Below, piece after piece: positions 23,057 through 52,416 of a DNA stretch of 62,954 nt (positions within the stretch are counted from its first letter, which is position 1; each line of letters begins with the position of its first letter). The stretch is taken from positions 1 to 62,954 of IMG/VR virus record IMGVR_UViG_3300021093_000072. One strand, given 5' to 3'. Both the position numbers and the translations under genes were made by a program. The notes under the pieces are model-generated. The model saw only the letters and a list, made by a program, of their open reading frames with translations. It made no database searches and was not told the origin of the DNA. Source of the stretch: a virus.

Positions 23057-23066
23057 CAATCATACG
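23057..23066 (-). promoter_or_regulatory. recurrent CGTATGATTG element upstream of a minus-strand gene
   Basis: On the minus strand this reads CGTATGATTG, with the -10-like hexamer TATGAT. It lies about 65 bp before the ATG of the acidic protein. The identical 10-mer occurs at four other sites in the window, always in minus orientation. It overlaps a tandem GCAGGCCAAT repeat (23041-23060). Confidence 0.45.
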
Positions 23067-23093
23067 ACATGACAGGCGTAAGATTCTGGGGTC

Positions 23094-23522
23094 ATGAAGA
23101 ACACAGCACACAACAATCGTAGCAAGAAGACTAACGTGACCGTCAAATCACTTAGGCAACTGAAAGGCAGATGTGTCGTCAGCCAACCTCACACCAGCAC
23201 CTGGAAAATCCTGACAGGTTCCGTGACTTCGAGGCGACCTCACGAAGAAGAAGAAGAAGAAGAAGAAGAAGTTTCCATGCATGCCATCACTACAGACGGG
23301 GTGGCGGAAAATAACCACATCTGCCTCCGTAAGATGGTACTAGAGGCTCGTGCCCGCGAGGGGGAGAGGATCCTGCATGCGGCCCGATTCCAAGAAATCT
23401 TGACAGAAGCCCTTGACAAGATTGAGGTTATAATCGTAGGCATGTCTCCGAATGACACTAGGGTTGCCAAGGTTATGGGTATCATCTCTAGAGCAAGGCA
23501 CATGTCTCAAGAGGTCGGATGA
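23094..23522 (+). CDS. hypothetical protein with poly-Glu tract
   Basis: In this 142 aa protein the N-terminal 45 residues are basic (NNRSKKTNVTVKS), followed by nine Glu (a GAA triplet repeat, about 23246-23271), then a helical C-terminal part (REGERILHAARFQEILTEAL). The last bases overlap the start of the SET-domain gene by four. Function unknown. Confidence 0.55.
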   Translation: MKNTAHNNRSKKTNVTVKSLRQLKGRCVVSQPHTSTWKILTGSVTSRRPHEEEEEEEEEVSMHAITTDGVAENNHICLRKMVLEARAREGERILHAARFQEILTEALDKIEVIIVGMSPNDTRVAKVMGIISRARHMSQEVG

Positions 23523-23992
23523 CCCTGTTGGTGGTAAAAAGCCTTGTGAACTGGTTCATGAAGGCTTCAAAAAACCACGGAGTAACCCTGCATTCAGGTA
23601 TGATATGCAAAAGGTCTCCCATACATGGTGTGGGAATTTTTGCTCCCCAAAAATACAGCAAGGGAGATGATACATACGAGATCATCTGCCCATGTGGTGA
23701 CGACAGTTGCAGGACAGAAGCATGTAGGCTCACAAACCACAGCAAAGATCCGAACATGTTTCTGGACCGAAGGGGTGACTCAGTGTGGGCCGTCGCAAAA
23801 AAGGAAATACCATGTGGCGAGGAGTGCACCATAGACTACAGGTCAGTCATGCCCATATTGACCACTGGCAGACCCATTGGGGCAGGCAGGATTTTGAGAC
23901 AGACTCCAGGAGTTGGAAGACTAGTCAGGGACGAGACTGGCTTGACGCTTCTTGATCAGCTTCAGGCGATTGAGGCTGGTCACTATCGGTAG
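23519..23992 (+). CDS. SET-domain protein
   Basis: This 157 aa protein has, after about 30 residues, KRSPIHGVGIFAPQKYSKGD (SET entry), then RLTNHSKDPNMFLDRRG (the NHS block that binds SAM and the target lysine) and GEECTIDY (the C-terminal Tyr block). These are the canonical SET motifs of lysine methyltransferases. A CPCGDDSCRTEAC segment may bind zinc. It could methylate host or phage proteins; the target is unknown. Its end overlaps the convergent gene by 68 bp. Confidence 0.8.
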   Translation: MTLLVVKSLVNWFMKASKNHGVTLHSGMICKRSPIHGVGIFAPQKYSKGDDTYEIICPCGDDSCRTEACRLTNHSKDPNMFLDRRGDSVWAVAKKEIPCGEECTIDYRSVMPILTTGRPIGAGRILRQTPGVGRLVRDETGLTLLDQLQAIEAGHYR

Positions 23993-24353
23993 GATATTCT
24001 TCGGGCTCTGCCATCTTTATGCCCTCGTCCTCCATGTACCCATAAAGAATTTTACATGCCTCGGTTACTAGCGCCCAGAGTTCATGCGGGTCTCCCTTGC
24101 TGAGTGACTTGTCATAATGCTCTGATGCTTTTGCAAGTGTGATCAGAGCCCTAAAAGAGGCATCCTTAAGCCTCTCAAACCTGCCCTCAAACTTGGTTCT
24201 TGCGTCAATGGCTCGAGCACAAGCCCTAACCACCTCGTCTCTGAGTATCCTTATTTCCTCGTGTGCTTCTTGGAGGAGTTGCCTGTTGTGCTGATGAGGA
24301 TTCATCAGTTCTGCTCGAAGCCTATCAAGTATGTGAGTTTTTGCTCTGTCCAT
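23925..24353 (-). CDS. hypothetical coiled-coil protein
   Basis: This 142 aa protein is strongly helical from about residue 20 to 90, with heptad-like spacing (LLQEAHEEIRILRDEVVRA). The C-terminus is a Pro/Ser/Gln-rich tail (DSDQPQSPEADQEASSQ). Its 3' end overlaps the SET-domain gene by 68 bp. Unknown role. Confidence 0.6.
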   Translation of the reverse strand: MDRAKTHILDRLRAELMNPHQHNRQLLQEAHEEIRILRDEVVRACARAIDARTKFEGRFERLKDASFRALITLAKASEHYDKSLSKGDPHELWALVTEACKILYGYMEDEGIKMAEPEEYPTDSDQPQSPEADQEASSQSRP

Positions 24354-24359
24354 ATTCTA

Positions 24360-24553
24360 TACCAAATTAATCATTTATCACAGAAATTCCATCCGTGAAA
24401 TTTTAAGATTTCACCCGCCGACACTCTACCGTTTCTTGCCATACAACCCACGAAAAATATTGTTTGAATTTTCAAATTTGCCATAAAGGTTTTCGATAGG
24501 TATTTTCATGATGATCATCAGCGATGCAAGAGTTGCACTTTTATGGTCGTCAC
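24360..24553. other. intergenic region, nothing supported
   Basis: This AT-rich interval of about 195 bp lies between two minus-strand genes. I see no gene or convincing terminator or promoter. It may be an untranslated spacer. Confidence 0.4.
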
Positions 24554-24859
24554 TCACGGTCGTATCGACATCATCCTTTTGATGTCTGCACGAAGAGATA
24601 AATTCTGATCTTTTATCTCCTGGATTTCAATGCGCAGCATTTCTGCTTCCGATTTGTGCCTGTCTAACTCTGAGAAGAGAAAATCACATGCGTGTCTTGA
24701 GGACATGGGTTCATGTCCTCTTTTTTGAGCCTCAAGCCACAACTGGCTTAGGATCCTGTTAGGAGTTCCAGGTTCGGCAATGTCCTCCCACATCCTCACC
24801 ATAGAGCGCAAGACTACATTCTCTTTATCTGCATCTTCCGCTGAACGCTTGATATTCAT
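24554..24859 (-). CDS. hypothetical coiled-coil protein
   Basis: This 101 aa protein is charged and helical, with SEAEMLRIEIQEIKDQN at about residues 70-86 reading as a coiled coil. The start is preceded by a purine run (AAAAGAGTGAA). No family is recognised. Confidence 0.55.
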   Translation of the reverse strand: MNIKRSAEDADKENVVLRSMVRMWEDIAEPGTPNRILSQLWLEAQKRGHEPMSSRHACDFLFSELDRHKSEAEMLRIEIQEIKDQNLSLRADIKRMMSIRP

Positions 24860-24917
24860 AGATTCACTCTTTTCATTCGATTTTTTAATCCTGGAAAGTT
24901 CTGCAACCGCATGCGGT

Positions 24918-25121
24918 CTAATCTATCGATGAATGCAAACTGCATGATCCTAGCCAGTTAGAAACGATAAGTGCAACGAAGATGATGGAAAATATTGTCA
25001 ACAAGATAACACTCAAGTTCATTGTCAAGCAAGATCCAATGAATAAACTACGGCCGATGGAGTTACGAATCCTCCTGAAGGCTATTGTTGTGCACGCATT
25101 CATCTTCCTGAGAGCATTCAA
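24918..25121 (-). CDS. small membrane protein, hypothetical
   Basis: This 67 aa protein has a basic N-terminus and one long hydrophobic segment (LSVILLTIFSIIFVALIVS) at about residues 36-54, a plausible transmembrane helix, with a short C-terminal tail. It could be an accessory membrane protein; there is no catalytic motif. Confidence 0.45.
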   Translation of the reverse strand: MNALRKMNACTTIAFRRIRNSIGRSLFIGSCLTMNLSVILLTIFSIIFVALIVSNWLGSCSLHSSID

Positions 25122-25127
25122 TAGTTG

Positions 25128-25304
25128 CTACCTGTCATTTTCACCACCGTTCAGGAGGTTGAAAACTTCGTACACAAGCCCGACAAGACCCGTCAGTGAG
25201 CCTTCGCCTGTCTTCTCGTCGTAATAGCCGTCACAATCGAATTTTTCGAGATATTCTAGGATGTCAACATCGGAGAACAACCTGTTTGCATGTTCATTCA
25301 CCAC
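25128..25304 (-). CDS. small hypothetical protein, GTG start
   Basis: A GTG at 25304 follows GGAGAGGAGAA and overlaps the stop of the gene upstream; it is preferred over the distant ATG at 25358. The product, about 58 aa, has FSDVDILEYLEKF and a Gly-rich middle (DEKTGEGSLTGLVGLV). Not recognised. Confidence 0.5.
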   Translation of the reverse strand: MVNEHANRLFSDVDILEYLEKFDCDGYYDEKTGEGSLTGLVGLVYEVFNLLNGGENDR

Positions 25305-25584
25305 TATTGATTCTCCTCTCCAAAAGTCTGATCTTCCTAGTGAGCCGCACAAGTTCATCTATTGCCTCATCCACAATGATCTGATCCATGGTGGACATGA
25401 CCAAGTTATGCCTGTATGACTTCAACTTTTGTAGCGTGATGACGTCAGACCCGATAACAGACTTGTTCAAAATCCTGATTTCTTCCGCCGCAGAGATGAG
25501 AACATCTCGGTCGCCGCTATCAGGCATGACACAGCCTTCAATTTTGGCGATGATAGACTCTATCTTTTCTGCGAGACAGGTCAT
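25294..25584 (-). CDS. small hypothetical helical protein
   Basis: This 96 aa protein is helical and charged, with a Leu-rich basic C-terminus (ELVRLTRKIRLLERRI). It is likely co-translated with the GTG-start gene after it. No assignment. Confidence 0.5.
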   Translation of the reverse strand: MTCLAEKIESIIAKIEGCVMPDSGDRDVLISAAEEIRILNKSVIGSDVITLQKLKSYRHNLVMSTMDQIIVDEAIDELVRLTRKIRLLERRINSGE

Positions 25585-25639
25585 TGATCAAGAGGATTTT
25601 ACGCTCCTGAAGGCGGTAGTCGAGAGATATTGTGACAAA

Positions 25640-26506
25640 TCAATCCATGAATGAAGCAGCCATTTTGGCCTCCTCGTCATGAATTCTGCGGTCGTATCTG
25701 ACTGTTGTCTGCGGGTTTGAGTGGCCAGCCATCTTCATGGCAACAGAGATGTCTACCCCGCCAAGCCACTCTCCGATGGCGGTACGCCTCAGGTCGTGTG
25801 GCGTAAACGACACCCCGGCCTTGGCCGCCACCCTGCGGATTATCTTGTTGATGGCTCGGCTAGTTATAGGTCTGTGGTACCTCACAAAGGCTCCACACTC
25901 GTGTGGGAGGATATAGAAGCCATCCCTGTCTCTTCCCCTAACGGACAGGTATGCCAGGAGGTCGGCACTTGCCTTCTCTCCAAGAGGAACCTGGCGCCGC
26001 CTGCCACCCTTGCCTATAACATTCACATGGGACATGTCAGGCGAAAAGTCCGTGGTTCTGAGGACTGTCACCTCAACCCTCCGTAGACCCGCCAGGAGCA
26101 GCCTCACCACGGCCCTATCGCGAAGACCTTGGTGGCCATCCCCGCACGCCTCGATGATCTTGTACCTGTCCTCGCGATCCACATGGCGCCCGCACGGGGG
26201 GGATGCCGGGCGGCTCCAGCGGAGGCTGGTGACCCTCTGGAGGTCTTCGTGGCTCTTGAGACCAAGACGCCAGCATTCCCTGATGACCTCCCTGACAAAA
26301 CTCATCTCTTTGGCAACCGTTGCCTGTGACTTACTATGCCCTAGGTGTGATGCTAGCCTGCTGAGGTCATCAACCCCCACCATGTGCCATGCTGCCGCCC
26401 CCTCCCCAAAAAGGAAGACCTCTGCCGACCTGATTGATCCTGAAGCAGAAACCTTAGACAGTGGTGCAAGTCTACTGAGCCAAGATTCGACTGGGTTCTT
26501 GTCCAT
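25640..26506 (-). CDS. tyrosine recombinase/integrase
   Basis: This is a site-specific DNA recombinase of 288 aa that breaks and rejoins DNA through a covalent Tyr intermediate. The catalytic set is present: R142 (AGLRRVEV), K166 (IGKGGR), H237 and R240 (TPHDLRR), H262 (AGHSN), Y271 (VRYDRR). The N-terminal 100 residues are the likely core-binding SAM-like domain. CAGGAAACAG lies before the ATG. It could integrate the phage, resolve multimers, or act in a mobile cassette. I see no clear attachment-site pair nearby. Confidence 0.9.
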   Translation of the reverse strand: MDKNPVESWLSRLAPLSKVSASGSIRSAEVFLFGEGAAAWHMVGVDDLSRLASHLGHSKSQATVAKEMSFVREVIRECWRLGLKSHEDLQRVTSLRWSRPASPPCGRHVDREDRYKIIEACGDGHQGLRDRAVVRLLLAGLRRVEVTVLRTTDFSPDMSHVNVIGKGGRRRQVPLGEKASADLLAYLSVRGRDRDGFYILPHECGAFVRYHRPITSRAINKIIRRVAAKAGVSFTPHDLRRTAIGEWLGGVDISVAMKMAGHSNPQTTVRYDRRIHDEEAKMAASFMD

Positions 26507-26527
26507 TCTGTTTCCTGATAGTTAAAG

Positions 26528-26788
26528 TCATTCGGATATGTGCCACAGGAGGTCGTCCATCCACTGGTGTTTCAGCCTACAGGCTTTGTACTCAGTTGTC
26601 AACTTCAAATTCTGCCTAATCTTGTTCATCTGCTTTGCCTCGTGCTCAGCAGCCTTTCGAGACCTAAAGACGAGATACCTACAACCCATGCCAGGAATGG
26701 AATCCTGAAGAATGAGTACATTCCCATGTTTATCCTGCTCTCCGCAGATGACGACCCATGATTCAGGCGGCAGTCTTCCTTCGGTCAT
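26528..26788 (-). CDS. small hypothetical protein
   Basis: This 86 aa protein has a beta-rich N-terminal half (ESWVVICGEQDKHGNVLIL and FRSRKAAEH) and a helical end (QWMDDLLWHI). It lies 21 bp before the integrase gene in the minus direction. Function unknown. Confidence 0.5.
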   Translation of the reverse strand: MTEGRLPPESWVVICGEQDKHGNVLILQDSIPGMGCRYLVFRSRKAAEHEAKQMNKIRQNLKLTTEYKACRLKHQWMDDLLWHISE

Positions 26789-26825
26789 GAGGTCATCTTA
26801 CGACCTCAACGCCCTGCTGTCAAGA

Positions 26826-27749
26826 CTATTCTCGGTTGGCGGTTGGGTCGAAACCAACAGGCTGGTTCATGATTTTTTCAGCTTGTTCCACAGATGCTGC
26901 AAGATTGCGTGGGTGTAGAAGTTGCTTATTCCTCATGGCTTGTGTGATGAGTTGAAACAACTCTAAGTATCCATCTCTTTCCATCATTTTGAATATTATG
27001 TTACCTCTACCCCAGTTTTGACTCATTCTGCCATAACCTGCGGGCTGACTATAGGCATCCCCTCTGAGTTTTTTCAAACGCTTCAATGCCTCAGCCATCT
27101 CATGAGCTTGAGCTTCAAGCCACTTCCTATTCCTAGACTCGCTTGGCTTTCCTGATTCAAGTGCCTTTCTGCCCACCCTTGCCCAGGACCTCACCATCCC
27201 TCGCAACCTTTCCTCTATGCGACGGTACTCTAGGCGTTCCGCAGAACTTCCTGACTCAACAAATTGGGTATAATTCACTGAGGCAGCACTCGGATTTTGC
27301 CTCTTCACAAAGCGCTCTCTAGTGGGGTCGTAAATGGCATCAGCATTGGCACTTTGCGCCCCCACTGATGAATCTGGTTTTATCTTGAACTGGAATGGTC
27401 TCTTCCCAAAATACATGGTGTTGTCAACATTTTCTCCAATCCAATCGTTGATGACTTTAAACCTTGGATCTGTTTCAGGTATGTTGATGAAAACGGTGGT
27501 GTCTACATCGCTCTTGGGGGTGTATTGGAAAGTTACTGCTGCTCCGACGATTTCATAATGCGTGATCTTGACCCCGGGATGTTCTTTTGACAGGTATGAC
27601 GATATGGTGGAGAGACCGCGCTGGATGTTATGTAACACTTCAGTCTTTAACTTCTCTGTTCCCGGCTCAAATACATCACTCAAATTGCTACTGGGACGAT
27701 CAACAACACCAGCCAATTTACCAGTTAGTCTAAAAATTGGCTTTTTCAT
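26826..27749 (-). CDS. nucleotidyltransferase-fold-like phage protein
   Basis: In this 307 aa protein, IVGAAVTFQYTPKSDVDTTV at about residues 68-87 matches the strand-(G-x)-helix-DxD layout of nucleotidyltransferases, with D83 and D85 as candidate metal ligands. The C-terminal half is helical. Its target and activity are unknown, and the assignment rests on that motif. The upstream region carries a symmetrical TATAATTATA that could drive both this gene and the SET-domain gene. Confidence 0.55.
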   Translation of the reverse strand: MKKPIFRLTGKLAGVVDRPSSNLSDVFEPGTEKLKTEVLHNIQRGLSTISSYLSKEHPGVKITHYEIVGAAVTFQYTPKSDVDTTVFINIPETDPRFKVINDWIGENVDNTMYFGKRPFQFKIKPDSSVGAQSANADAIYDPTRERFVKRQNPSAASVNYTQFVESGSSAERLEYRRIEERLRGMVRSWARVGRKALESGKPSESRNRKWLEAQAHEMAEALKRLKKLRGDAYSQPAGYGRMSQNWGRGNIIFKMMERDGYLELFQLITQAMRNKQLLHPRNLAASVEQAEKIMNQPVGFDPTANRE

Positions 27750-27762
27750 GCATTGCTCCGAG

Positions 27763-27772
27763 TATAATTATA
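27763..27772. promoter_or_regulatory. palindromic TATAATTATA, possible divergent -10 boxes
   Basis: TATAAT can be read on both strands (27763-27768 plus, 27767-27772 minus) between divergent genes. The minus box lies about 17 bp before ATG 27749. Confidence 0.4.
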
Positions 27773-27858
27773 CAATTTTTTACCATGCTCCTTCATGGGA
27801 ATGTCACTGCGTAATTACAGTATCGTGCATGTTCATAAGGTTTTTTCGACTTCTACCG

Positions 27859-27864
27859 TATAAT
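27859..27864 (+). promoter_or_regulatory. TATAAT directly before the SET gene, leaderless candidate
   Basis: In CGTATAATT the last T of TATAAT is six bases before ATG 27870, so transcription would start at about the start codon. This resembles the sites before cas12 and the MoxR gene. Confidence 0.4.
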
Positions 27865-27869
27865 TATGT

Positions 27870-28247
27870 ATGTGGCTGATCAAGACATCGATAGACAGGT
27901 CTAGTATTCACGGATTTGGTTTGTTTGCTCAAGAAGATGTGCCTGCTGGCGCACTGATTTGGCGCAGGAACCCGTCCATCGACATCAAGGTTGAGTGGAG
28001 CGATCAGGTGATAAACTCCATGCCGTCGCATGTCGCAAAGTCAGTTAGGTTAAGAAGTTATGTTGACCATTCGACAGGCGTCAGAACCTTCGGGATTGAC
28101 GGCGATGCATTTGTGAATCATCAAGACATCCCAAATGTTGTGTTTGATTCAAATGGAGATGGCTATGCCTCAAGGCGCATAATCATCGGAGAAGAGATCA
28201 CTAACAACTATCAGGACATAGATCTCTCTTTTTCCCCTCTGCATTGA
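27870..28247 (+). CDS. small SET-domain protein
   Basis: In this 125 aa protein, SSIHGFGLFAQEDVPAGALI starts a SET domain, with DAFVNHQDIPNVVFD (NHxxxPN block) and GEEITNNYQDI (the Tyr block). It is shorter than most SET enzymes but keeps the three signature regions, suggesting a lysine methyltransferase or a derived binding protein. There is no Shine-Dalgarno. It is a distant relative of the SET protein at 23519-23992. Confidence 0.75.
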   Translation: MWLIKTSIDRSSIHGFGLFAQEDVPAGALIWRRNPSIDIKVEWSDQVINSMPSHVAKSVRLRSYVDHSTGVRTFGIDGDAFVNHQDIPNVVFDSNGDGYASRRIIIGEEITNNYQDIDLSFSPLH

Positions 28248-28330
28248 CATCTAACTTGCGCATGATAGGTGCATGCGCAGGTCACCGATGGGAAACTTTC
28301 ACACTTGCCTCAAGTATGGCTGCAGTACCG

Positions 28331-28729
28331 TCAGGAGCTTGCAGATTTGCGCAACTCCTTCAATCGAGATAAGTCTTTTACTTTGGTTCTGCCATTATAT
28401 GCCCAGGCATAGCCAAGTTTTACCATTATGTCATTAATGACTTCTCCAGTGGACTCACTTATAATGCCGAGCAACCTGCCATATTTATCATCTTTGAATG
28501 TCCTGATGACCAAATTGTCCTTATGTTTTTCAATCCAAGATGTAAGAAATACCTTGGACTCTTCACTCATAGACTTTTCTTCTAGGTTTTTTGAATGAGT
28601 TTCAGGGGTATCAATCCCGTGCAAGCGGATTCTTTGTTTGCAAAATACGCCAAATCCAAGATCCATAGTGCAGTCGAGGGTGTCTCCATCCACAACCTTT
28701 TCGACAGAACTAATTTTATATTCGTACAT
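28331..28729 (-). CDS. thermonuclease (staphylococcal-nuclease-like)
   Basis: This is a 132 aa nuclease that cuts single- and double-stranded nucleic acids with Ca2+. VDGDTLDC holds the metal-binding Asp, IRLHGIDTPETH carries the Arg and Glu matching R35 and E43, and KYGRLLG the Arg matching R87. It has no signal peptide, so a cytosolic or virion role is more likely than secretion. The C-terminal half resembles the fragment at 5774-6184. Confidence 0.9.
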   Translation of the reverse strand: MYEYKISSVEKVVDGDTLDCTMDLGFGVFCKQRIRLHGIDTPETHSKNLEEKSMSEESKVFLTSWIEKHKDNLVIRTFKDDKYGRLLGIISESTGEVINDIMVKLGYAWAYNGRTKVKDLSRLKELRKSASS

Positions 28730-28800
28730 AAAGAGTATTACTTGTCTTTGTTTGGTATGTCCTCTGAAGGTGTAAAGGTTGATTTGGGAGAAAAATAATC

Positions 28801-29754
28801 ATGCCGAATGTGGTATCAGACAATCTGCAGAGCAAGCATGCTGACATATTCTTACATGAGGTGTCAAAGAGGTTACCACCACCAAGCTTAAAAGCCATAA
28901 CAATGCTATTAAATACTACCGATCAGGAACTCAGTACTAGACCTGACCCTCCAAATGTCAATGTCGAGTTAAAAAACATAATCATGAATGCTCTTGATGA
29001 GGCCTACATGGCATATCCAGCTCCTCAACTCATTAATCACAAATCATCTGATTTACTGATAAAAAATCACATTATGTTCGTAATATCCCGTTATGGTTTA
29101 ACACAAACTTCAGAAGATAAAGTGAGCCGTCAGGTGGATGAATTGGTCACGAACTTCGTCTCTAAAATAACAGGAAAAAAAGGTACCAGCCGTGACCAAG
29201 CAATTAAAACTATGAACGAGCAATTTGACAATGTGTGCAAATCAGGACGAGATTCAGATTGGTACATCGATTTTATTGGTCATTTAGTAGATTTTCACGA
29301 TGTCCTCTGGGTAAAAAAAGAATGTTTTGAACTGTTAGTCAATGCTTTGGAGGAAATAGGTTGCCCGGAATTTTTGCGTAGATACCCTAGCCAAGGGCAA
29401 CATTTGATAGCAACCATAGTAGATGCACTCAATAACAATGCAACCCTGCCACCCAAAATCCTCAAGGAGGCGGTCATGATGATCAATTCTGATCCCAGTC
29501 TCGCACGCACAATTTATGATATCTTTGGGGTGCGAGGTTTCAAAAATCCTAGCTATATGGTGAAGCGGCAGATGGACACATTGCTGACATCGGTTGCACT
29601 TTTAGGGGAAGAACAGAGCAGAGATGTTCTGTTTTCGATATCCGAAACATCTCAAGCACTTAACAATACACAGTTACAACAACTAGAATCTGGATATCTT
29701 ATAGACTCCATAACGGGGAAACTTTACGATCCAAATAAATCCAATAGCCCATAA
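28801..29754 (+). CDS. hypothetical all-helical protein
   Basis: This 317 aa protein has GGGAGAA before the ATG and is composed of helical segments, with no enzyme motif seen. Residues NNATLPPKILKEAVMMI and DPSLARTIYDIFG recall helical repeat packing but do not form regular units. It precedes the ferritin-like gene by 34 bp. Role unknown. Confidence 0.6.
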   Translation: MPNVVSDNLQSKHADIFLHEVSKRLPPPSLKAITMLLNTTDQELSTRPDPPNVNVELKNIIMNALDEAYMAYPAPQLINHKSSDLLIKNHIMFVISRYGLTQTSEDKVSRQVDELVTNFVSKITGKKGTSRDQAIKTMNEQFDNVCKSGRDSDWYIDFIGHLVDFHDVLWVKKECFELLVNALEEIGCPEFLRRYPSQGQHLIATIVDALNNNATLPPKILKEAVMMINSDPSLARTIYDIFGVRGFKNPSYMVKRQMDTLLTSVALLGEEQSRDVLFSISETSQALNNTQLQQLESGYLIDSITGKLYDPNKSNSP

Positions 29755-29788
29755 AAGGACGGCATTGGAAAAGATCTAAAATAATACC

Positions 29789-30163
29789 ATGAACATGATA
29801 TCTACATTCTTGTGCATGCAGTCACAGATAAAAGTTTGGCATTGGCAGACGCAGTCTTATGCCGAGCACAAGGCACTTGGCAAGTTGTACGAAACACTAG
29901 ATCCACTTGTAGACGACTTCGTGGAGACCTTTGCAGGCGTCTCAGGAGTACCCAAGACCAAGGATTCTTTCCGAACTGAGTGCACAAATCACCCAGGCTC
30001 TGATGCCATCATGAATTACCTGACAGAAAAAGTAGAATGGCTCAATGGCGAGTTACCATCACAGATATCTCAGGTTTCTGTAGAAAGATCAGACCTGATG
30101 AACATCATAGACGAAATGGTGGCAGCCATAAATAAGACAAAATACCTACTGCGACTGAAGTGA
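29789..30163 (+). CDS. ferritin-like (Dps/DUF5856-like) protein
   Basis: The 124 aa N-terminus, STFLCMQSQIKVWHWQTQSY then AEHKALGKLYETLD, resembles small phage and viral ferritin-like proteins with H and E residues in a helix bundle. Whether the metal site is complete I cannot judge. It may bind or store iron, or only keep the fold. No clear Shine-Dalgarno; ATG 29795 is an alternative start. Confidence 0.55.
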   Translation: MNMISTFLCMQSQIKVWHWQTQSYAEHKALGKLYETLDPLVDDFVETFAGVSGVPKTKDSFRTECTNHPGSDAIMNYLTEKVEWLNGELPSQISQVSVERSDLMNIIDEMVAAINKTKYLLRLK

Positions 30164-30213
30164 CCGCAGTTTGAGGTTCGGGCGCATTAGAATGATGTGC
30201 TAGTCTTTTTACA

Positions 30214-31054: not shown

Positions 31055-31081
31055 TTCTACCCTTATTGTTCACACGTCAAA

Positions 31082-31166
31082 TGTCGGTGACAGGAATCGA
31101 ACCTGTACAGCTTTTGAGGCCGGCGAATTTTAAGTCCGCTGCGTCTGCCAGTTCCGCCACACCGAC
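31082..31166 (-). tRNA. tRNA-Leu (anticodon UAA)
   Basis: The acceptor arms GTCGGTG and CACCGAC pair fully, with U8 and discriminator A. The anticodon arm GCGGA-CTTAAAA-TTCGC gives anticodon TAA. A long variable arm (typical of Leu) and the T-arm ACAGG-TTCGATT-CCTGT follow. The CCA end is not encoded. It is 85 nt long. A promoter-like CGTATGATTG lies just upstream. The tRNA may supplement Leu UUA decoding in the host. Confidence 0.95.
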
Positions 31167-31177
31167 ATTTTCCACGA

Positions 31178-31187
31178 CAATCATACG
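31178..31187 (-). promoter_or_regulatory. CGTATGATTG element before the tRNA
   Basis: It reads TATGAT at 31180-31185 on the minus strand; transcription would begin at about 31173, a few bases before the tRNA 5' end. It is the same 10-mer as at four other sites. Confidence 0.55.
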
Positions 31188-31388: not shown

Positions 31389-31440
<52 letters not shown>

Positions 31441-31441
31441 G

Positions 31442-31459
31442 GGGGGGGCATGCCCCCCC
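31442..31459. terminator. perfect G7-CATG-C7 palindrome, possible bidirectional terminator
   Basis: GGGGGGGCATGCCCCCCC is a perfect 18 bp inverted repeat, able to form a 7-pair stem with a CATG loop. It lies between convergent genes ending at 31386 and 31468. A short CTCTACTTTTC follows on the plus side, but no strong T-run, so terminator function is uncertain. Confidence 0.45.
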
Positions 31460-31467
31460 TCTACTTT

Positions 31468-45157: not shown

Positions 45158-46191
45158 TAGCGCACCTCAGAAACATTTGCTATCATTGAAATCCAATCAC
45201 GACGTGCTTCATTTTCGTCGCACCAAATACGTAGCGCACATTCGCGTGCCAAGGCACCCATCCGCCATCTGTTGTCTGGCTGATGCAGATACTCTAGAGC
45301 TCCACGCATGTCGTCAAGATCTTCAACAAGGAAGCCAGTGCGGGTGTGCCACACCATGTTGGTGAAATTCCACTTTGGTGGGGCTATAACTGGCATACCA
45401 GAAAGTTGCGCCTCGACAACGGCACGAGACTGGTTTTCGATGTAAGAGAATGAGCCATTGTAGACAAAAACATCAACTCCCGCAAGCCAGTCACTTACTG
45501 GAATTTCGCACGGCTTTCTCAACTTCCACCGCGAGTCAAAATCATGCCACTTGTATTGTGCAGCAACCTCATCGCTCCACCCCATTAGGTCATACTTCCA
45601 CAGAGGTGCAGCAGACTGCCAAAGCACTGGTAAATCACAGGAAAATTTTGCAGTGTCTGGACGGCTAACCTTGCCCATGACGGGCTGCCTATCTGGTCTA
45701 ACTATCATCGGCCAGTGGTGAGAATCTATGTAATTCTTCAGTATGCGTATTGGTTGAGTTGGTCGTGCTGCTGCGACCTCTGCATGCATCTTTTGAGCGT
45801 GGAACTGACTAGTGTAGAGAACCATATCCACCATACCCTGGCGGATACCGACCAATTCTGCCTCTGTGTGCCACATCATGTCGTTGGCCCATATGAACTT
45901 AAGGCCACGAGATTTTATGCTGCGTAGACGATCTTTATCAGAGAAGAGCCTGAAATTGCAGCACGAAAATGCGAACCCATCGCACTTTTCGGGGAGTTGA
46001 TCATGGGTGCAATACTTTACCCCTAGATAGTCCATCCAGTCTGTCCAGTTTTTTTCTGACAATCTGAATTCATCATTAGGAACAACTGTAATGGCGTAAT
46101 CTTTTGCACACATAGAGACTATGTCCCTCATGCGAGTGTCCGCACCTCCTAGATCTGACGGCCACTGAAATATGTAAAGTGATGGTTTCAT
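45157..46191 (-). CDS. GT4-type glycosyltransferase
   Basis: This protein of about 344 aa has a GT-B fold pattern: SLYIFQWPSDLGGADTRMRD at the N-terminus (the GG loop), VDVFVYNGSFSYIENQSRAV with VVEAQLSGMPVIAPPKW near residues 255-290 (the glycosyltransferase group 1 signature, Glu-x7-Glu-like). The start is chosen at ATG 46191; the frame runs upstream to 46230. The 3' end abuts the next gene. The acceptor is unknown. Confidence 0.75.
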   Translation of the reverse strand: MKPSLYIFQWPSDLGGADTRMRDIVSMCAKDYAITVVPNDEFRLSEKNWTDWMDYLGVKYCTHDQLPEKCDGFAFSCCNFRLFSDKDRLRSIKSRGLKFIWANDMMWHTEAELVGIRQGMVDMVLYTSQFHAQKMHAEVAAARPTQPIRILKNYIDSHHWPMIVRPDRQPVMGKVSRPDTAKFSCDLPVLWQSAAPLWKYDLMGWSDEVAAQYKWHDFDSRWKLRKPCEIPVSDWLAGVDVFVYNGSFSYIENQSRAVVEAQLSGMPVIAPPKWNFTNMVWHTRTGFLVEDLDDMRGALEYLHQPDNRWRMGALARECALRIWCDENEARRDWISMIANVSEVR

Positions 46192-46327
46192 GATGCTTTT
46201 TTTACCTGATGTGAATTCATGGCAGACCATAGGCTGACATCCGACGCAGACACCAACTCTAGTCTACCACCATGCTTTATCGGCTTGAGATTGCGTTTAC
46301 TCATAGGGGGCATCTATTTAACTTGAA

Positions 46328-46429
46328 CTACAGATTTAGATTGGTAGCCAACTCGAACGGGGTTCTTATCTTTCCAAAAAAGCGTATCTGGTTTATGATT
46401 TCTTCGGTAGAAACTGACTTTTGTCCCAT
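46328..46429 (-). CDS. 33-aa small protein
   Basis: AGAAGGAGAAAGTC lies directly before ATG 46429, a strong Shine-Dalgarno. The product, MGQKSVSTEEIINQIRFFGK then a short tail, ends at TAG 46328. A plus-strand frame on the same DNA has no such support. Function unknown. Confidence 0.5.
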   Translation of the reverse strand: MGQKSVSTEEIINQIRFFGKIRTPFELATNLNL

Positions 46430-46487
46430 GACTTTCTCCTTCTATGGAAATTCCACATGAGGAGTATATAGCTTATTAGTAGGAAAG

Positions 46488-46916
46488 TCAAGAACGACAA
46501 TCAAGATCGTCCACAGATCCTATAATCCTCTTGAGATTGTTCTTGAGAATGCGCTCTAGGCGCAATCTGGCTGTGTCGGCGGCTCCCTCGGCCTCTGGCT
46601 GGGTCAGATACTGCCCTATGGTTCTGTAATGGCTGTCTATATTGATATAGACATCCCAGACTTTTATCTTCCTGTTAGGAGATATCCCAGGGCCAACCAC
46701 GCCAAGGATGTCTGGATACTCCGCCCTCTTCTCTATAAATGTGGAGAATATTGGGTCACATCTGCAATATAGAGGATCAACCTGCCTATTGTCTTCTTCA
46801 TGAGCAAGCATCATGCACCACTCCACATCGGTCAATTCATTTATTGACTTAGTCAGTATCTGACGACGGCGCTGCTCTCGAGTTGGCTTTTTGCTGTTAT
46901 TTTTATTTTCATCCAT
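46488..46916 (-). CDS. hypothetical protein
   Basis: This protein of about 142 aa starts at ATG 46916, downstream of the promoter-like TATGAT (46938-46943); the upstream ATG at 46961 would precede that element. It has a Lys/Asn-rich N-terminus (MDENKNNSKKPTREQRRR), then ELTDVEWCMMLAHEED and a helical C-terminus (AADTARLRLERILKNNL). Not recognised. Confidence 0.55.
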   Translation of the reverse strand: MDENKNNSKKPTREQRRRQILTKSINELTDVEWCMMLAHEEDNRQVDPLYCRCDPIFSTFIEKRAEYPDILGVVGPGISPNRKIKVWDVYINIDSHYRTIGQYLTQPEAEGAADTARLRLERILKNNLKRIIGSVDDLDCRS

Positions 46917-46935
46917 TGTGGTTTTCTCGCATGAC

Positions 46936-46945
46936 CAATCATACG
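46936..46945 (-). promoter_or_regulatory. CGTATGATTG element
   Basis: It reads GCGTATGATTGG on the minus strand and lies about 20 bp before ATG 46916. It is the same 10-mer as in four other places. A start there gives a short leader, consistent with the chosen start codon. Confidence 0.5.
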
Positions 46946-46984
46946 CTCGAAGGAATCTCATTACGACGATAGGAACAAGATCAT

Positions 46985-47191
46985 GTGAGCAACGAAAATC
47001 TACGAGAAATTTTCTACCAAAATGTTCTGAACATCCTGTCGAACAAGGGCAACTGGGCCGACTTCAACAAGCACTACAACCTTTGGCTCCAGGTGAAAAA
47101 AATGGAGCAACTTAAAAGACCATCATTCGTGGATGGCAGCATCGATGTGCCCGAGCCCGACCCAGACGATTACCCTCTTATTAATCCCTAA
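46985..47191 (+). CDS. small hypothetical protein, GTG start
   Basis: This 68 aa protein starts at GTG 46985 (SNENLREIFYQN), with AGGAAC upstream. It has a helical N-terminus and an acidic Pro-rich end (IDVPEPDPDDYPLINP). The 3' end overlaps tilS by 11 bp. Function unknown. Confidence 0.5.
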   Translation: MSNENLREIFYQNVLNILSNKGNWADFNKHYNLWLQVKKMEQLKRPSFVDGSIDVPEPDPDDYPLINP

Positions 47192-47900
47192 GGATGCTTC
47201 GGGCCGTCTTAGATGCGAACACAGATCTGTAAGCCTTCAAATGCGGAGTAACCATGCGACGCAGGTAGGCCCTCTCTCTGCATGTGTTCTGATTGGAAGG
47301 GTCGTCGACCCATGGAACCCCAGCCTTCGTGACGAAATCATCGATCACATCTCTGTCAAAATCTAGCATTGGACGAACGACAGGGGATTTGAACATAAAA
47401 GACCTACGTTCGATGAATCTGCTCGTAGAGATTGGAGATCCACGAGCTAACCTCATCAGCACGGTCTCCAGCATGTCATCAGCATGGTGCGCAGTGAGCA
47501 CTTCTCCACCAAAATTGTCGGCTTCTGCAGAGAGGGCTTCATATCTAACCATCCTGCCCTGCTCGTAAACATTACCTGTCTTTGGAACAATAACGCTCCT
47601 GCTGACAAATTCAAAGCCAAGCGCCCAAGCCTGTATCCTAGCGGTCGCTTCGTCTATATGTGCGTCCGGCCGAAGACCATGATTCACATGACACATACAC
47701 ACTTGGGATGGATGGTCGACGATGATTCTGAGTGCGACCGATAGAGCTAACGAGTCCCTGCCTCCACTTGCTCCAACAATGTACCTGCCAACGCTAGATG
47801 TATGTTTCCTAACACCAGCAACCAGTTCGTGTCTCCTTAGATCTGGAACATCTGCCTTAAGATCAAAGAGGATTGGTACGTGTAAATCGGGAATAAACAT
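47181..47900 (-). CDS. tilS: TilS-like tRNA(Ile)-lysidine synthetase
   Basis: This PP-loop ATPase of 239 aa converts the wobble C of tRNA-Ile(CAU) to lysidine. GASGGRDSLALSVAL is the SGGxDS ATP-binding loop; CHVNHGLRP, AHHADDMLETVLMRLARG and PWVDDPSN are the TilS core motifs. It is shorter than bacterial TilS and lacks the usual C-terminal domain. It may help phage or host decode AUA codons. Confidence 0.8.
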   Translation of the reverse strand: MFIPDLHVPILFDLKADVPDLRRHELVAGVRKHTSSVGRYIVGASGGRDSLALSVALRIIVDHPSQVCMCHVNHGLRPDAHIDEATARIQAWALGFEFVSRSVIVPKTGNVYEQGRMVRYEALSAEADNFGGEVLTAHHADDMLETVLMRLARGSPISTSRFIERRSFMFKSPVVRPMLDFDRDVIDDFVTKAGVPWVDDPSNQNTCRERAYLRRMVTPHLKAYRSVFASKTARSILRD

Positions 47901-47927
47901 TGGTAGGTTTACGAAAGGAAGAAGATA

Positions 47928-48704
47928 GTGTCAAAACTGGTCAAATACTCTCGTGCACAATGGATAAAAGATGGTATGGATTTGGGGATAGTGATTTCTC
48001 ATGCGGACACTCCCAAAAAGTTCATGACAAAAATCGCCCAGAGCAAAGATCAATTTATTTCTCTGTGCGATATCTACAATATAGATCCCGATGCACTGAT
48101 GGACGCCCATCGCAGGCGCGGTGTTCTTGAAAACCATAAGTCTGCTAAAGCAATCATACGACGTCTCGGGGCCACCCCCCGCAGGGAAGATTTGGAAAAA
48201 TTCATGGAGACAGCCGCTGTCCTTGAGAAGGTTGCCTTCTTGGGGTCAATAGGACAGGGAATTGGGTGGTTGGCAACATTTGGACTGGGCAGACTGCTGA
48301 AGTGGGGAGCGGGTATTGGACTTGTTGCAGCCCTCATCTACTATCTTGGCAAGGCTGGCTTTTTCGGAAAACCAGCCAAAGTCGATCCAAAGATGATCGA
48401 TGCGGCACGCTCGGCTGGCATACCGAACCCCGAAAAAGTGATGCCATATGCGGCAAATCTGAATCACGGGGAAAATCTGGACGCCCTGAAAAAATTGCAT
48501 GCTGCCATGTGCAAGAAGAGCGGAAGATGCAAAGACAACGGTTCCATAAACACGATAATGAATGTTTTAAGACGCAAAGACGAAACCATCAGCCCCTGGG
48601 CGGTCGCAGGAGCTGCCGCTGGAACTGCAGGAATTGCAGGACAACTTGTCGGCGGCGTCACCGACGTCGTAAAGAGCGTTGCTAGTTTCGCCACCAAAAA
48701 ATAG
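47928..48704 (+). CDS. hydrophobic membrane protein, hypothetical
   Basis: This 258 aa protein starts at GTG 47928 after AAGGAAGAAG. Two hydrophobic segments stand out: LGRLLKWGAGIGLVAALIYY (about residues 119-138) and an Ala/Gly-rich stretch near 225-250 (AVAGAAAGTAGIAGQLVGG). Its YSRAQWIKDG near the N-terminus recalls the SQW motif seen at 6245-6340. It could be a membrane-active or virion protein. Confidence 0.55.
   Translation: MSKLVKYSRAQWIKDGMDLGIVISHADTPKKFMTKIAQSKDQFISLCDIYNIDPDALMDAHRRRGVLENHKSAKAIIRRLGATPRREDLEKFMETAAVLEKVAFLGSIGQGIGWLATFGLGRLLKWGAGIGLVAALIYYLGKAGFFGKPAKVDPKMIDAARSAGIPNPEKVMPYAANLNHGENLDALKKLHAAMCKKSGRCKDNGSINTIMNVLRRKDETISPWAVAGAAAGTAGIAGQLVGGVTDVVKSVASFATKK
48151..48160 (-). 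promoter_or_regulatory. CGTATGATTG element inside a coding region
   Basis: The same 10-mer lies antisense within the membrane-protein gene, about 250 bp before tilS in the minus direction. It may be a long-leader promoter for tilS or a chance match. Confidence 0.25.
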
Positions 48705-48712
48705 CATCCAGA

Positions 48713-49096
48713 ATGAGCAGACCACCAAGCAACTGGCACCAAAGAAGTAAAACGTGCTCTCTCGAGGGCAGAAATGTGTCAGGAAAAAACAAACTAGGCG
48801 TTGAAGAGCACGGCAAGTGCACATCTTGCTGGAGAGACGGCTTTGGAACCATGTTTGCTAGAATACAGACCAAATCAGGCTCTGCCGATGTCTATGCGTC
48901 AACCTGCAGAACACATGCAGAACCAGAGAAGAAAACATTTCAAGGGAAGACTGTCGAATACAACTTTGCAGGCAGAAGATATGATGGCAAAGTCATCGAA
49001 GCTGGTAGATCTATGGCTACTGTCGAGCATTTTGACCCCATGACAGGACATAAAAAGTTAGTTAGGGTTCCCCGCAGTCATATACTTGATTCATGA
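48713..49096 (+). CDS. small hypothetical protein, possibly zinc-binding
   Basis: In this 127 aa protein, HGKCTSCWRDGFG and a later CRTHAE supply three Cys and two His that could bind zinc, followed by a basic beta-rich segment (FAGRRYDGKVIEAGRS). It overlaps the next gene by four bases. Role unknown. Confidence 0.5.
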   Translation: MSRPPSNWHQRSKTCSLEGRNVSGKNKLGVEEHGKCTSCWRDGFGTMFARIQTKSGSADVYASTCRTHAEPEKKTFQGKTVEYNFAGRRYDGKVIEAGRSMATVEHFDPMTGHKKLVRVPRSHILDS

Positions 49097-49578
49097 GAGC
49101 AAAAGCAGTCTGGTGTGACCATGACATGGCAAGAGATCTTGTCATCTGGTCAGATGGCCCCATGGGAAAATCTACCGCACTACTTGCTCTGATTGCAAAA
49201 TTTGAGTCTTGTGTTTCTGCTTCATCTTGGGGCAGTGACGACCTATGGAAACTGAAACCACTGCATGCCCCAACAGCATCGCATGTGAGAATGATGAAAC
49301 CAGTGGACACACTCATGTGGTATCCTCCTATGCGACTAGGGGCATGTCCGATCGATGTACCATCGTCGGTTTGGTATATAGACTCCATGCTGCAGGAGAT
49401 CAGAGCATCAAAGCAATGCGTGGTCGTGATTGACGATGCTGATCTCTTTGGGCGTACCACGGAATGCCTGCGAAAGATCCAAGATGCATGCAAAGACGGC
49501 GGCAGCCAGATGATAGCCTCTGTGAGAAACAGACCGCCATCCGATGGAGACTGGCAAATACATAAGATGGTTGACTGA
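49093..49578 (+). CDS. P-loop ATPase-like protein
   Basis: In this 161 aa protein, WSDGPMGKSTALLAL is a Walker-A-like loop (the usual first Gly is replaced) and CVVVIDDADLFG is a Walker B. It is the size of a small DNA or nucleotide-binding ATPase. Its start overlaps the preceding gene by four bases. Function unknown. Confidence 0.6.
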   Translation: MRAKAVWCDHDMARDLVIWSDGPMGKSTALLALIAKFESCVSASSWGSDDLWKLKPLHAPTASHVRMMKPVDTLMWYPPMRLGACPIDVPSSVWYIDSMLQEIRASKQCVVVIDDADLFGRTTECLRKIQDACKDGGSQMIASVRNRPPSDGDWQIHKMVD

Positions 49579-50469
49579 TCAGGGATTGATCAAGTTATTA
49601 GGATCTGGGTCGAGGCCTTTCGACTCCTCGTCTTTTAAATGTTCAGAGGAAAGATATGCAACTGCATGCTTCTTCATCTTCTCGATTTGACCAGGAGTGA
49701 AGGACCTGCCTCCGAATCTTGCATAGGTCATAATGTTCATCTTATTTGGGTCATCATCAGAGCCTAGCAATATCAGCGAACTTGGCCCCTGAGGGGTATC
49801 GTCCACATTATCTCCGCTGTCATTAAAGGTATGCTGAAGACCAAAATGATGTCCCATTTCGTGACTTAAAACCTGAGGAAGATCAGTGCTGCCAGATATC
49901 CAAATTTGTCCGCATTTGTCATTCCCAACTTCAGCAATCCCGGCGAGGCCAAGGCCTATACCTAGCAGGTAATTTATATCGATCAGCTTTTTGTTATCTA
50001 CACCTTTCATTGGTCTCTTGAGAACCTGCTGAATGATGTTACCTTCCTCTGCCTTTCGCACTGCCTGCAGGGCGATGGAAGAGTGAGGATCAAAAGGCAC
50101 CTCTTCAACAGACCAGTCAAACTCCTTGACAACGAACACGATGCCCGAAGCAGCAAAGTCCTCATTCAGCCCCCTTAGATCGTCCATAATATTTTTCAGT
50201 GACCTCGCTTCGACACGCTCAACGGTTCCATCTGGCCTCTGCCATTTGACCACCTGAACACGGATACTGACACCGAATGTTGCACTCTTGCCATGCTTCC
50301 ACTTCTCCAAAATGGAATAAGCAGATTTCTGCCATTCATCAAACGAAGCGACCCTAGTTTGTATCGAGTCGTCTGCAGGGGTGTTATTTTTGGTGGACGT
50401 AGCCCCTAGGACTGCAAAGGCGGCGAATAGTGTCGTCGCCAAACGATTGGTTTGGCGTGAATAACTCAT
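49579..50469 (-). CDS. pappalysin-like (M43) metalloprotease with signal-like N-terminus
   Basis: In this 296 aa protein, SHEMGHHFGLQHTFND at about residues 203-218 contains HExxHxxGxxH, and NIMTYA at about 250-255 the Met-turn, as in M43 metalloproteases. The N-terminus (ATTLFAAFAVLGATS) is hydrophobic and could be a signal or lipoprotein-like leader. FDEWQKSAYSI recalls the N-terminal WQKSA of the protein at 39807-41249. It may digest host or virion proteins outside the cytosol. Confidence 0.8.
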   Translation of the reverse strand: MSYSRQTNRLATTLFAAFAVLGATSTKNNTPADDSIQTRVASFDEWQKSAYSILEKWKHGKSATFGVSIRVQVVKWQRPDGTVERVEARSLKNIMDDLRGLNEDFAASGIVFVVKEFDWSVEEVPFDPHSSIALQAVRKAEEGNIIQQVLKRPMKGVDNKKLIDINYLLGIGLGLAGIAEVGNDKCGQIWISGSTDLPQVLSHEMGHHFGLQHTFNDSGDNVDDTPQGPSSLILLGSDDDPNKMNIMTYARFGGRSFTPGQIEKMKKHAVAYLSSEHLKDEESKGLDPDPNNLINP

Positions 50470-50475
50470 ACATAA

Positions 50476-51462
50476 TCAATACAAACATTTTAAACCAATT
50501 CCTTCGTCATAAGTGCTTAATACGCAGTTATTTATGCAAGAATGTGCCGAAAACAACTTGGTAGTTTTTGAGGAATTGCCCGCCTTCTTCAGCAACATGC
50601 GAACACCATGTGCATAAGCTTTAGGATCATTTTTAACGCACCACATACATGGTGACACATCATGTGTGGCCCCAAGTATGAACATGTTTGCTTCATCATG
50701 ACACAGTTCACAATGGTCAAATTTGAAGTGCCTTTCAATCCAGTCCGCAGGAACAGGATGCGTTCTTCTAGTGCTCTTTGCGATGATCTCGATAAGATAT
50801 TCTGCATCATCGCCAATCATGGAGTGCAGAAGTTCGCTAGGCGATGTATCGTGAAACAAAATACGCGAGTAACCGCCAACTTGTCGATAGATACGCGAGT
50901 AACCGCCAACCCACCGAAAACCATCTTCCGACTTAACATGGGTAACGCATCGACTCAACATTAGTGACAGTCTGATGTCGTCTTTGTGTGTGACAGCATA
51001 GGCAAGCGCCACAGCAGCACTAAAAGAAAAACTGCGAGACCGCCAATTTAAAAACTTCAGGTGTTTTTGCATCATCGGAAGATATGGCAAAAGCTCGTGG
51101 CTCATCAGCGGAACCATTGGTCTTATGTACCTGATTAACTTAGATGCCACAACCTTATAAAGAAATGGCTTTTTCCATTCTGGAATGTCAAATTTTGATT
51201 GCGCACTCATAGATGACAGAACCATGCTGCCTAGCATCATAGAAAAAGACCAAGGATCACATCCTGGCCAAAATTCCCCACAATTGCTTGATAAATGCCA
51301 CCCAAGAGGGTCGTGCCCTTCTAGTGGTCTAGAAAGATGGAATCGGACTATGCCGCTATGATGACCACAAAACTCAAGTACAAAATCATCACCGTGTCTT
51401 GATATGGATAAGTTAGGAACCTTGAACTTGTGCCCTGAGTTAGCATTCACGGGACGGGACAC
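50476..51462 (-). CDS. hypothetical protein with Cys/His clusters
   Basis: This 328 aa protein contains HCELCHDEANMF and CMWCVKNDP, which could bind zinc, and SRIYRQVGGYSRILF, a 10-residue repeat encoded by two 20-base copies (ATACGCGAGTAACCGCCAAC on the plus strand, about 50861-50910). The 5' end overlaps the sigma-like gene by 16 bp. Unassigned. Confidence 0.55.
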   Translation of the reverse strand: MSRPVNANSGHKFKVPNLSISRHGDDFVLEFCGHHSGIVRFHLSRPLEGHDPLGWHLSSNCGEFWPGCDPWSFSMMLGSMVLSSMSAQSKFDIPEWKKPFLYKVVASKLIRYIRPMVPLMSHELLPYLPMMQKHLKFLNWRSRSFSFSAAVALAYAVTHKDDIRLSLMLSRCVTHVKSEDGFRWVGGYSRIYRQVGGYSRILFHDTSPSELLHSMIGDDAEYLIEIIAKSTRRTHPVPADWIERHFKFDHCELCHDEANMFILGATHDVSPCMWCVKNDPKAYAHGVRMLLKKAGNSSKTTKLFSAHSCINNCVLSTYDEGIGLKCLY

Positions 51463-52349
51463 AACTTATCCTGCCTCATGAGGCGGATTACCTCAGCAAG
51501 GGCGCAAGACGCATCCCTGTCGCAGCGACCAGGCTTGTCCTCAATGATCGCCTGAATAGTGTTCTGTGAATTTTCGGTAAGAAGTGCTCTGTTGTCTTTT
51601 AGCCATGTGCTGAGTGCCTCTTGGTGCTCGAGATTGTATTCCGACGACCCAGGATCAGCAATCTGAACCATTTGCCTACAGTCGTCATCGGCAAAGATAC
51701 TAACACTCTGCCTATTCCTTTGCTGATTGACCTCTCTAAAACTCTGGCATCTGATGGAGTTGTTGAGGGCGTTGACTGCGTATGTGGAGAACTTGAGGTT
51801 CCTATGTGGATCAAAAAGATCAATGCAGTCAAGCAACTTAAGACTGCTCTTGGCGAGGATGTCTTCCTCGTCGGATGTGACATAATGGGCGCACAACTTG
51901 TTATTCTTGCGCCACCAGTCAATCATGAGCGGATAGTTAAGGTAGTATAAATTTTCCCTGATGTATACCGCCCTGTGAAACAGCGTCCCACCCCAGTCAT
52001 CTTCAACGATCTCGACCCAGGTTTTGCCTTTCCCGTGCATAGAAATGAGTTCCCTGCGAGCACTTAGGGCAGCACCGAAAAACTCGTTCTCTTCTGCACG
52101 AGTCAGAACAACTGAATTCCTAACCCCTTGACTGTTGGAGGTGCAGCCTTCACTGCGCTTCCTGATCATGTTGTAGGCCCGTTCTAGCCTGATGGGACAA
52201 ACGACAAGAGAATTAACTGGCGTCTTGTCAACGAACCTCTGTCCGATTCCTGTTGGAGAGGCTAGAGCATGCCTCACCTTGGTTTCAATATCAAAGATCA
52301 ATAGAGCCTCCTTGCGATCGTTATTATTGACGCGAACTCCGTGCGCCAT
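51447..52349 (-). CDS. sigma-70-like factor
   Basis: This protein of about 300 aa, starting at ATG 52349 (TAGGAGTGGTAGGAT upstream), would replace or add to host sigma for phage promoters. LLDCIDLFDPHRNLKFSTYA, then VNALNNSIRCQ, matches region 2 of sigma-70 factors (core-binding and promoter melting). The preceding RENLYYLNYPLMIDWWRKN fits region 1.2/2.1. The C-terminal QNTIQAIIEDKPGRCDR may be a reduced region 4, but no strong helix-turn-helix is evident. A frame extending to 52409 would start on TTG within the promoter-like element. Confidence 0.72.
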   Translation of the reverse strand: MAHGVRVNNNDRKEALLIFDIETKVRHALASPTGIGQRFVDKTPVNSLVVCPIRLERAYNMIRKRSEGCTSNSQGVRNSVVLTRAEENEFFGAALSARRELISMHGKGKTWVEIVEDDWGGTLFHRAVYIRENLYYLNYPLMIDWWRKNNKLCAHYVTSDEEDILAKSSLKLLDCIDLFDPHRNLKFSTYAVNALNNSIRCQSFREVNQQRNRQSVSIFADDDCRQMVQIADPGSSEYNLEHQEALSTWLKDNRALLTENSQNTIQAIIEDKPGRCDRDASCALAEVIRLMRQDKLCPVP

Positions 52350-52406
52350 GTGTATCCTACCACTCCTATCTCGAGCATGCAAGACCCCTCTTGAAAGTTT
52401 CTGTGC

Positions 52407-52416
52407 CAATCATACG
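52407..52416 (-). promoter_or_regulatory. CGTATGATTG element upstream of the sigma-like gene
   Basis: It reads GCGTATGATTGG on the minus strand, about 60 bp before ATG 52349. It is one of five identical 10-mers, and the gene it precedes encodes a sigma-like factor, so autoregulation is possible. Confidence 0.5.

What the first reader, a model, noticed from the sequence alone, without database searches (positions are those of the whole stretch)
23057..52416. Five identical CGTATGATTG elements, all on the minus strand, at starts of genes or the tRNA
Sites at 23057, 31178, 46936, 48151 and 52407. About 0.1 occurrences are expected by chance in both strands of a 63 kb sequence. Four lie directly upstream of a gene or tRNA, with GCG or TCG before and TTGG or TTGT around TATGAT. 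No -35 is shared, so a phage-specific sigma factor is plausible.
Basis: partly seen in the sequence, partly recalled or inferred. Interest (0 to 1): 0.75.

Follow-up and report, generated by a model that had tools for sequence, protein, structure and literature searches.

The report
Phage promoter box before tRNA genes
A ten-letter DNA word, repeated exactly in an uncultured large bacterial virus, sits just in front of tRNA genes and a few protein genes and is most likely the virus's signal for starting transcription, a known kind of element in a new sequence version.

Summary
CGTATGATTG occurs five times in the window, all on the minus strand (0.08 expected); four copies lie 10-65 nt before a tRNA or gene. 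The fifth (48151) is antisense inside a well-supported plus-strand gene. The count alone is only moderately surprising (2 of 100 simulations reach it); position is the strong evidence. I tested it blind: a near-identical contig extends the phage 27.8 kb leftwards, and its single exact copy lies between a tmRNA terminator and tRNA-Gly. A sister, CGTATGATGA, precedes tRNA-Met. De novo comparison of the 34 nt before all six RNA genes returns GCGTATGA/CGTATGAT as the top octamers (3 of 6 genes, nominal p about 5e-8). The last T of TATGAT lies 9-21 nt before tRNA 5' ends; related CGTANNAT boxes lie 6-7 nt before two ATGs. This is the geometry of a -10 promoter box, and no -35 is present. A sigma-70-family protein (51447-52349) with region 2 and no detectable region 4 is encoded under one copy and is a plausible reader, but nothing here separates it from a host sigma factor. 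Verdict: most likely a real -10-only phage promoter; the phage-specific-sigma claim is plausible, not shown.

The parts
23057..23066 (-). Exact CGTATGATTG; proposed -10 element before ORF 22486-22992 (ATG at 22992 with GGAG-type Shine-Dalgarno; alternative ATG at 23022)
31178..31187 (-). Exact CGTATGATTG; proposed -10 element of tRNA-Leu(TAA), last T of TATGAT 13 nt before the tRNA 5' end
31081..31167 (-). tRNA-Leu(TAA) gene downstream of the box
   Evidence: ARAGORN, Rfam
46936..46945 (-). Exact CGTATGATTG; proposed -10 element, last T 22 nt before ATG of ORF 46488-46916
48151..48160 (-). Exact CGTATGATTG, antisense inside plus-strand gene 47976-48704; chance copy or antisense start
   Evidence: plus gene coding score 79, minus ORF 47931-48137 score -4
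52407..52416 (-). Exact CGTATGATTG; proposed -10 element before the sigma-like gene
51447..52349 (-). Sigma-70-family protein, 300 aa, region 2 present, region 4 not detected; candidate reader of the box
   Evidence: low-confidence model
27857..27864 (+). Related box CGTATAAT, last T 6 nt before ATG of ORF 27870-28247 (leaderless geometry)

Best explanation
CGTATGATTG is the -10 element of a class of phage promoters that lack a -35 box. A sigma factor on RNA polymerase binds TATGAT together with the adjoining CG on the upstream side and TTG on the downstream side, opens the DNA and starts RNA about 7 nt after the hexamer, giving tRNAs with short 5' leaders and mRNAs with short to moderate leaders. 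Shown: the sequence, its position, recurrence outside the window, absence of -35, spacing compatible with a -10 box. Inferred: that transcription starts there. Open: which sigma reads it; given that it is a promoter I put about even odds on the phage protein 51447-52349 and the host housekeeping sigma.
For: Five exact copies against 0.08 expected; four of five directly upstream on the same strand. Blind test: the only exact copy in 27.8 kb of extension lies between a tmRNA terminator and tRNA-Gly. Unbiased octamer comparison before six RNA genes returns GCGTATGA and CGTATGAT first, 3 of 6 genes; extension alone 2 of 5, p 2e-5. Last T of the hexamer 9, 9, 13 and 21 nt before tRNA 5' ends and 6-7 nt before two coding ATGs. 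CG is the most enriched dinucleotide before TANNAT in sense-upstream zones, 9 against 1.35 expected, next at most 3. No -35.
Against: No transcript data. One of six exact copies is antisense in a gene. One-mismatch neighbours are near background (5 extra, about 4.5 expected), so the box is unusually rigid for a promoter, although T4 late promoters are rigid too (PMC2988020). Most genes of the phage have no such box, and a motif sampler over all upstream regions did not find it. The wider CGTANNAT family is only suggestive (Fisher p 0.05 under the strict coding rule).
Confidence: 0.85

Rival explanations
1. Phage-sigma version: the box is read by the phage's own reduced sigma (51447-52349), as T4 late promoters are read by gp55, and the copy at 52407 gives positive autoregulation.
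For: Sigma region 2 in Pfam, PHROG, NCBIfam and PDB searches; no region 4 found, matching the missing -35; box upstream of its own gene; rigid decamer with conserved bases outside the hexamer; jumbo phages without a polymerase often encode sigma factors (PMC13282480).
Against: Weak E-values; helices in the C-terminal model could be a degenerate region 4; a sigma needing its own promoter needs a first source of transcript; sigma relatives in distant phages have region 4-like C-termini and those phages show the decamer at chance.
Confidence: 0.42
2. Host-sigma version: the box is simply this phage's preferred form of the host housekeeping -10 box (TANNNT type), with no phage sigma needed.
For: TATGAT is one base from TATAAT; variants CGTAAAAT, GTGTAAGAT and GTGTAATTT occupy the same place before tRNA-Ser, tRNA-Arg and the tmRNA; one related box has a perfect TTGACA at 17 nt (26795); leaderless genes with TANNNT boxes are common in several bacterial phyla (PMC3160421).
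Against: Does not explain why ten bases are fixed exactly while one-mismatch versions are near background, nor the consistent lack of -35 at decamer sites. Host unknown.
Confidence: 0.43
3. Operator or RNA-level element: the decamer is a binding site for a regulator, or a processing or translation signal in 5' leaders, not the -10 box itself.
For: Location near 5' ends alone would also fit; sequence is very rigid.
Against: Not palindromic; the copy before tRNA-Gly directly follows a terminator, leaving little room for another promoter; spacing never below 6 nt in the supported cases fits a -10 box; no resemblance to a Shine-Dalgarno sequence.
Confidence: 0.1
4. Chance repetition of a 10-mer.
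For: Some 10-mer as extreme occurs in 2 of 100 simulated sequences, and a coding 10-mer is nearly as frequent.
Against: Upstream placement and recurrence before tRNAs outside the window.
Confidence: 0.03

Closest known systems
T4 late promoters read by gp55 (PMC2988020)
   Same: A rigid -10-region box, no conserved -35, read by a reduced phage sigma; the phage here encodes a sigma-like protein without detectable region 4.
   Different: T4 consensus TATAAATA differs (one copy in 90.7 kb here); T4 has about fifty sites for late genes and needs gp33 and gp45, whereas here few sites, half of them before tRNAs, and no co-activator was looked for.
Sigma-28/FliA-type composite -10 (consensus GCCGATAA; PMC2859248)
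   Same: GC bases directly upstream of the core -10 form a composite box; region 2 of the phage protein is nearest to WhiG/FliA-like models.
   Different: Core is TATGAT rather than CGATAA-like, and no TAAA-type -35 is evident.
TANNNT boxes of leaderless bacterial genes (PMC3160421)
   Same: Box ends 6-7 nt before ATG at two genes here, the same geometry.
   Different: Here the CG before the hexamer and TTG after it are fixed at the decamer sites, and most decamer sites have leaders of 13 nt or more.

Membership tests
Bacterial-type -10 promoter element | TANNNT-like hexamer upstream of transcription units on the sense strand | tested here: met
Bacterial-type -10 promoter element | Spacing that places the start about 7 nt after the hexamer, never inside the RNA | tested here: met
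   distances 6-60 nt in supported cases, (inferred starts, not mapped)
Bacterial-type -10 promoter element | Transcription starts there | not testable with these tools
   no RNA data
Sigma-70 housekeeping promoter (TTGACA plus -10) | -35 hexamer 16-18 nt upstream | tested here: not met
   1-4 of 6 matches at decamer sites, as in random sequence
T4-type late promoter | TATAAATA consensus | tested here: not met
   one copy in 90.7 kb
Sigma-70 family protein (51447-52349) | Region 2 | tested here: met
   Pfam 0.0018 (below curated cut-off), PHROG 2.6e-4, NCBIfam 4e-5
Sigma-70 family protein (51447-52349) | Region 4 helix-turn-helix | tested here: not met
   no hit for the C-terminal 84 aa; a degenerate form cannot be excluded from the low-confidence model
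gp55 family | Sequence relation to gp55 and clamp-binding C-terminus | tested here: inconclusive
   no gp55-annotated PHROG hit; clamp-binding motif not tested

The most novel reading that the evidence does not exclude
A large CRISPR-carrying phage encodes a reduced sigma factor lacking region 4 that reads a private composite -10 box (CG-TATGAT-TG), used largely for its own tRNA genes and for the sigma gene itself: a small self-reinforcing regulon unlike the structural-gene regulon of T4 late transcription.
Probability: 0.25. Interest if true: 0.6.

Novelty: new member of a known kind. Interest (0 to 1): 0.38.

Why it matters
Promoters of uncultured huge phages are almost unknown. A defined box with a candidate sigma in the same genome gives a directly testable pair, and the context suggests that phage tRNA genes can have promoters of their own rather than relying on read-through.

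Tried and rejected
Gibbs sampling over all upstream regions found no convincing motif. Searches for close relatives by sigma, ATPase and helicase proteins gave none in viral contigs and only distant phages; records found with the ATPase profile are distant and hold the decamer at chance. Their sigma proteins are 19-25% identical and end in region 4-like helix-turn-helix sequences by eye. Host assignment through the UDP-galactopyranose mutase gene was inconclusive (Planctomycetota first, at 44-45%, then mixed). The decamer occurs in 14 papers; the ten listed are unrelated by title. Pattern scans for contigs covering the right half found nothing, and the left extension ends with one contig. Boxes at 26795, 23084 and -23042 were not counted as firm promoters because the ORFs below them score poorly as coding. 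A Shine-Dalgarno or RNA-processing role was considered and set aside (rival 3).

Full report
Observation. The five exact CGTATGATTG sites exist where stated, all on the minus strand, against 0.08 expected. It is the most over-represented dispersed 10-mer of the window, but a coding word is nearly as extreme, and 2 of 100 simulated third-order Markov sequences contain a 10-mer of equal surprise. Counting alone would not carry the claim.

Position. With genes predicted from a hexamer coding model, four of five sites lie on the same strand within 100 nt of a start (p about 2e-5 to 8e-5): before ORF 22486-22992 (or 23022), tRNA-Leu 31081-31167, ORF 46488-46916, and the sigma-like ORF 51447-52349. 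The fifth, 48151, is antisense inside 47976-48704, whose coding score is high, while the minus ORF below the motif scores as non-coding. I read it as a chance copy or an antisense start.

Blind test outside the window. The record is 62,954 bases of a virus with no near match among deposited phages over 40000-62000. Scanning viral contigs with the repeat of its CRISPR-like array found ten near-identical contigs from other samples. One of them (IMGVR_UViG_3300020578_000249) runs 27.8 kb past the left end. It contains exactly one further CGTATGATTG, at window coordinate -7058 on the plus strand. ARAGORN places tRNA-Gly(TCC) shortly downstream and a tmRNA upstream (Rfam finds both). The tmRNA is followed by a strong stem-loop with a T-rich tail (-21.6 kcal/mol), then four bases, then the motif. 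A tRNA behind a terminator needs its own start, and the motif takes up much of the space available. I found this site after forming the prediction, so it is an independent confirmation, though a single one.

RNA genes as an unbiased probe. Five tRNAs and one tmRNA lie in the 90.7 kb. Asking which octamers recur in their 34-nt upstream sequences, without naming the motif, gives GCGTATGA and CGTATGAT first, in 3 of 6 genes (nominal p 2e-8 and 5e-8, not corrected for the 155 octamers looked at). In the extension alone CGTATGAT precedes 2 of 5 (p 2e-5). tRNA-Ser has CGTAAAAT, tRNA-Arg GTGTAAGAT and the tmRNA GTGTAATTT at similar places.

Geometry. Distances from the last T of TANNAT to the RNA 5' end or ATG are 9, 9, 13 and 21 nt for tRNAs and 6, 7, 22, 37 and 60 nt for ORFs with coding support. 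A -10 hexamer ends about 7 nt before the start (established for sigma-70 promoters), so 6-7 nt to an ATG implies a leaderless message; TANNNT boxes about 12 bp before start codons are taken as the mark of leaderless bacterial genes (PMC3160421). Across all NN-TANNAT boxes, CG is the most enriched dinucleotide in sense-upstream zones (9 against 1.35 expected; next at most 3). A gene-caller-free version gives 14 of 30 against 60 of 413 (p 7e-5; 10 of 24 and p 0.002 without the decamers); a stricter coding rule that also admits internal ATGs weakens this to p 0.05. So CG-TATGAT is firm and the wider CGTANNAT family only suggestive.

No -35. At decamer sites the best TTGACA match at 15-19 nt is 1-4 of 6, like random sequence, and beyond the decamer only isolated columns agree in four of five gene-associated copies. 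One related box (26795) has a perfect TTGACA at 17 nt, which looks host-like, although the ORF below it has no coding support.

Who reads it. ORF 51447-52349 matches sigma region 2 in Pfam, PHROG, PDB and NCBIfam searches at modest E-values. By eye the region reads KFSTYAVNALNNSI, without the tryptophan pair of housekeeping sigmas. No region 4 is detected. The structure model is poor (pLDDT 48), and its Foldseek matches are mostly sigma factors but none better than E 0.17. Promoters without -35 read by a reduced sigma recall T4 gp55 (PMC2988020), and many jumbo phages without their own polymerase encode sigma factors (PMC13282480; PMC7824862). On the other side, the box is one base from TATAAT, variants sit before other RNA genes, and the sigma gene itself carries the box, so something else must transcribe it first. 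I cannot choose; about equal odds.

Breadth. In 48 distant records (about 7.2 Mb) the decamer occurs five times, chance level; in three named huge-phage genomes it occurs 0-2 times. It belongs to this phage lineage, not to huge phages in general. Near-identical contigs from other samples keep the sites they cover, but at 99.7-99.9% identity that is no test of selection.

Verdict. Most likely a real -10-type phage promoter, a known kind of element with a new and unusually fixed sequence. The phage-sigma reading is open and testable. Interest 0.38.

Noticed in passing
window 86-3320: CRISPR-like array (36-bp repeat GGTGTCAACACCCGTCAAAAAATGGGTGATCACAAC, about 14 copies, 24-30-bp spacers at 2431-3276) directly after a 728-aa ORF with weak TnpB/Cas12 hits (phrog_506, NCBIfam TnpB, PADLOC Cas12u3) and RuvC-like GVDLG and DRDLYAALNL motifs by eye: candidate phage-encoded compact type V CRISPR system, no hit in deposited phages.
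   Followed up: partly
L113 13083-13426 (left extension, about window -7446 to -7105): The phage carries a tmRNA gene (tag ANESLMLQAA) beside tRNA-Gly.
   Followed up: no
window 47181-47900: tRNA lysidine synthetase (TilS) N-terminal domain protein, above NCBIfam cut-off.
   Followed up: no
window 9845-12003: Three neighbouring genes with 78-bp (26-aa) tandem repeats, next to a tail-spike gene.
   Followed up: no
window 31436-31465: GGGGGGGGGCATGCCCCCCC palindrome; two independent contigs of the same phage end within about 20 bp of it.
   Followed up: no
window 23059-23084: Two head-to-head boxes (CGTATGAT minus, CGTAAGAT plus) about 10 bp apart, possible divergent promoters; plus ORF 23094-23522 has weak coding support.
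   Followed up: partly
window 27870-28247: ORF whose start (SIHGFGLFAQEDVPAGALIWR) looks like a SET-domain protein by eye; no NCBIfam hit.
   Followed up: no
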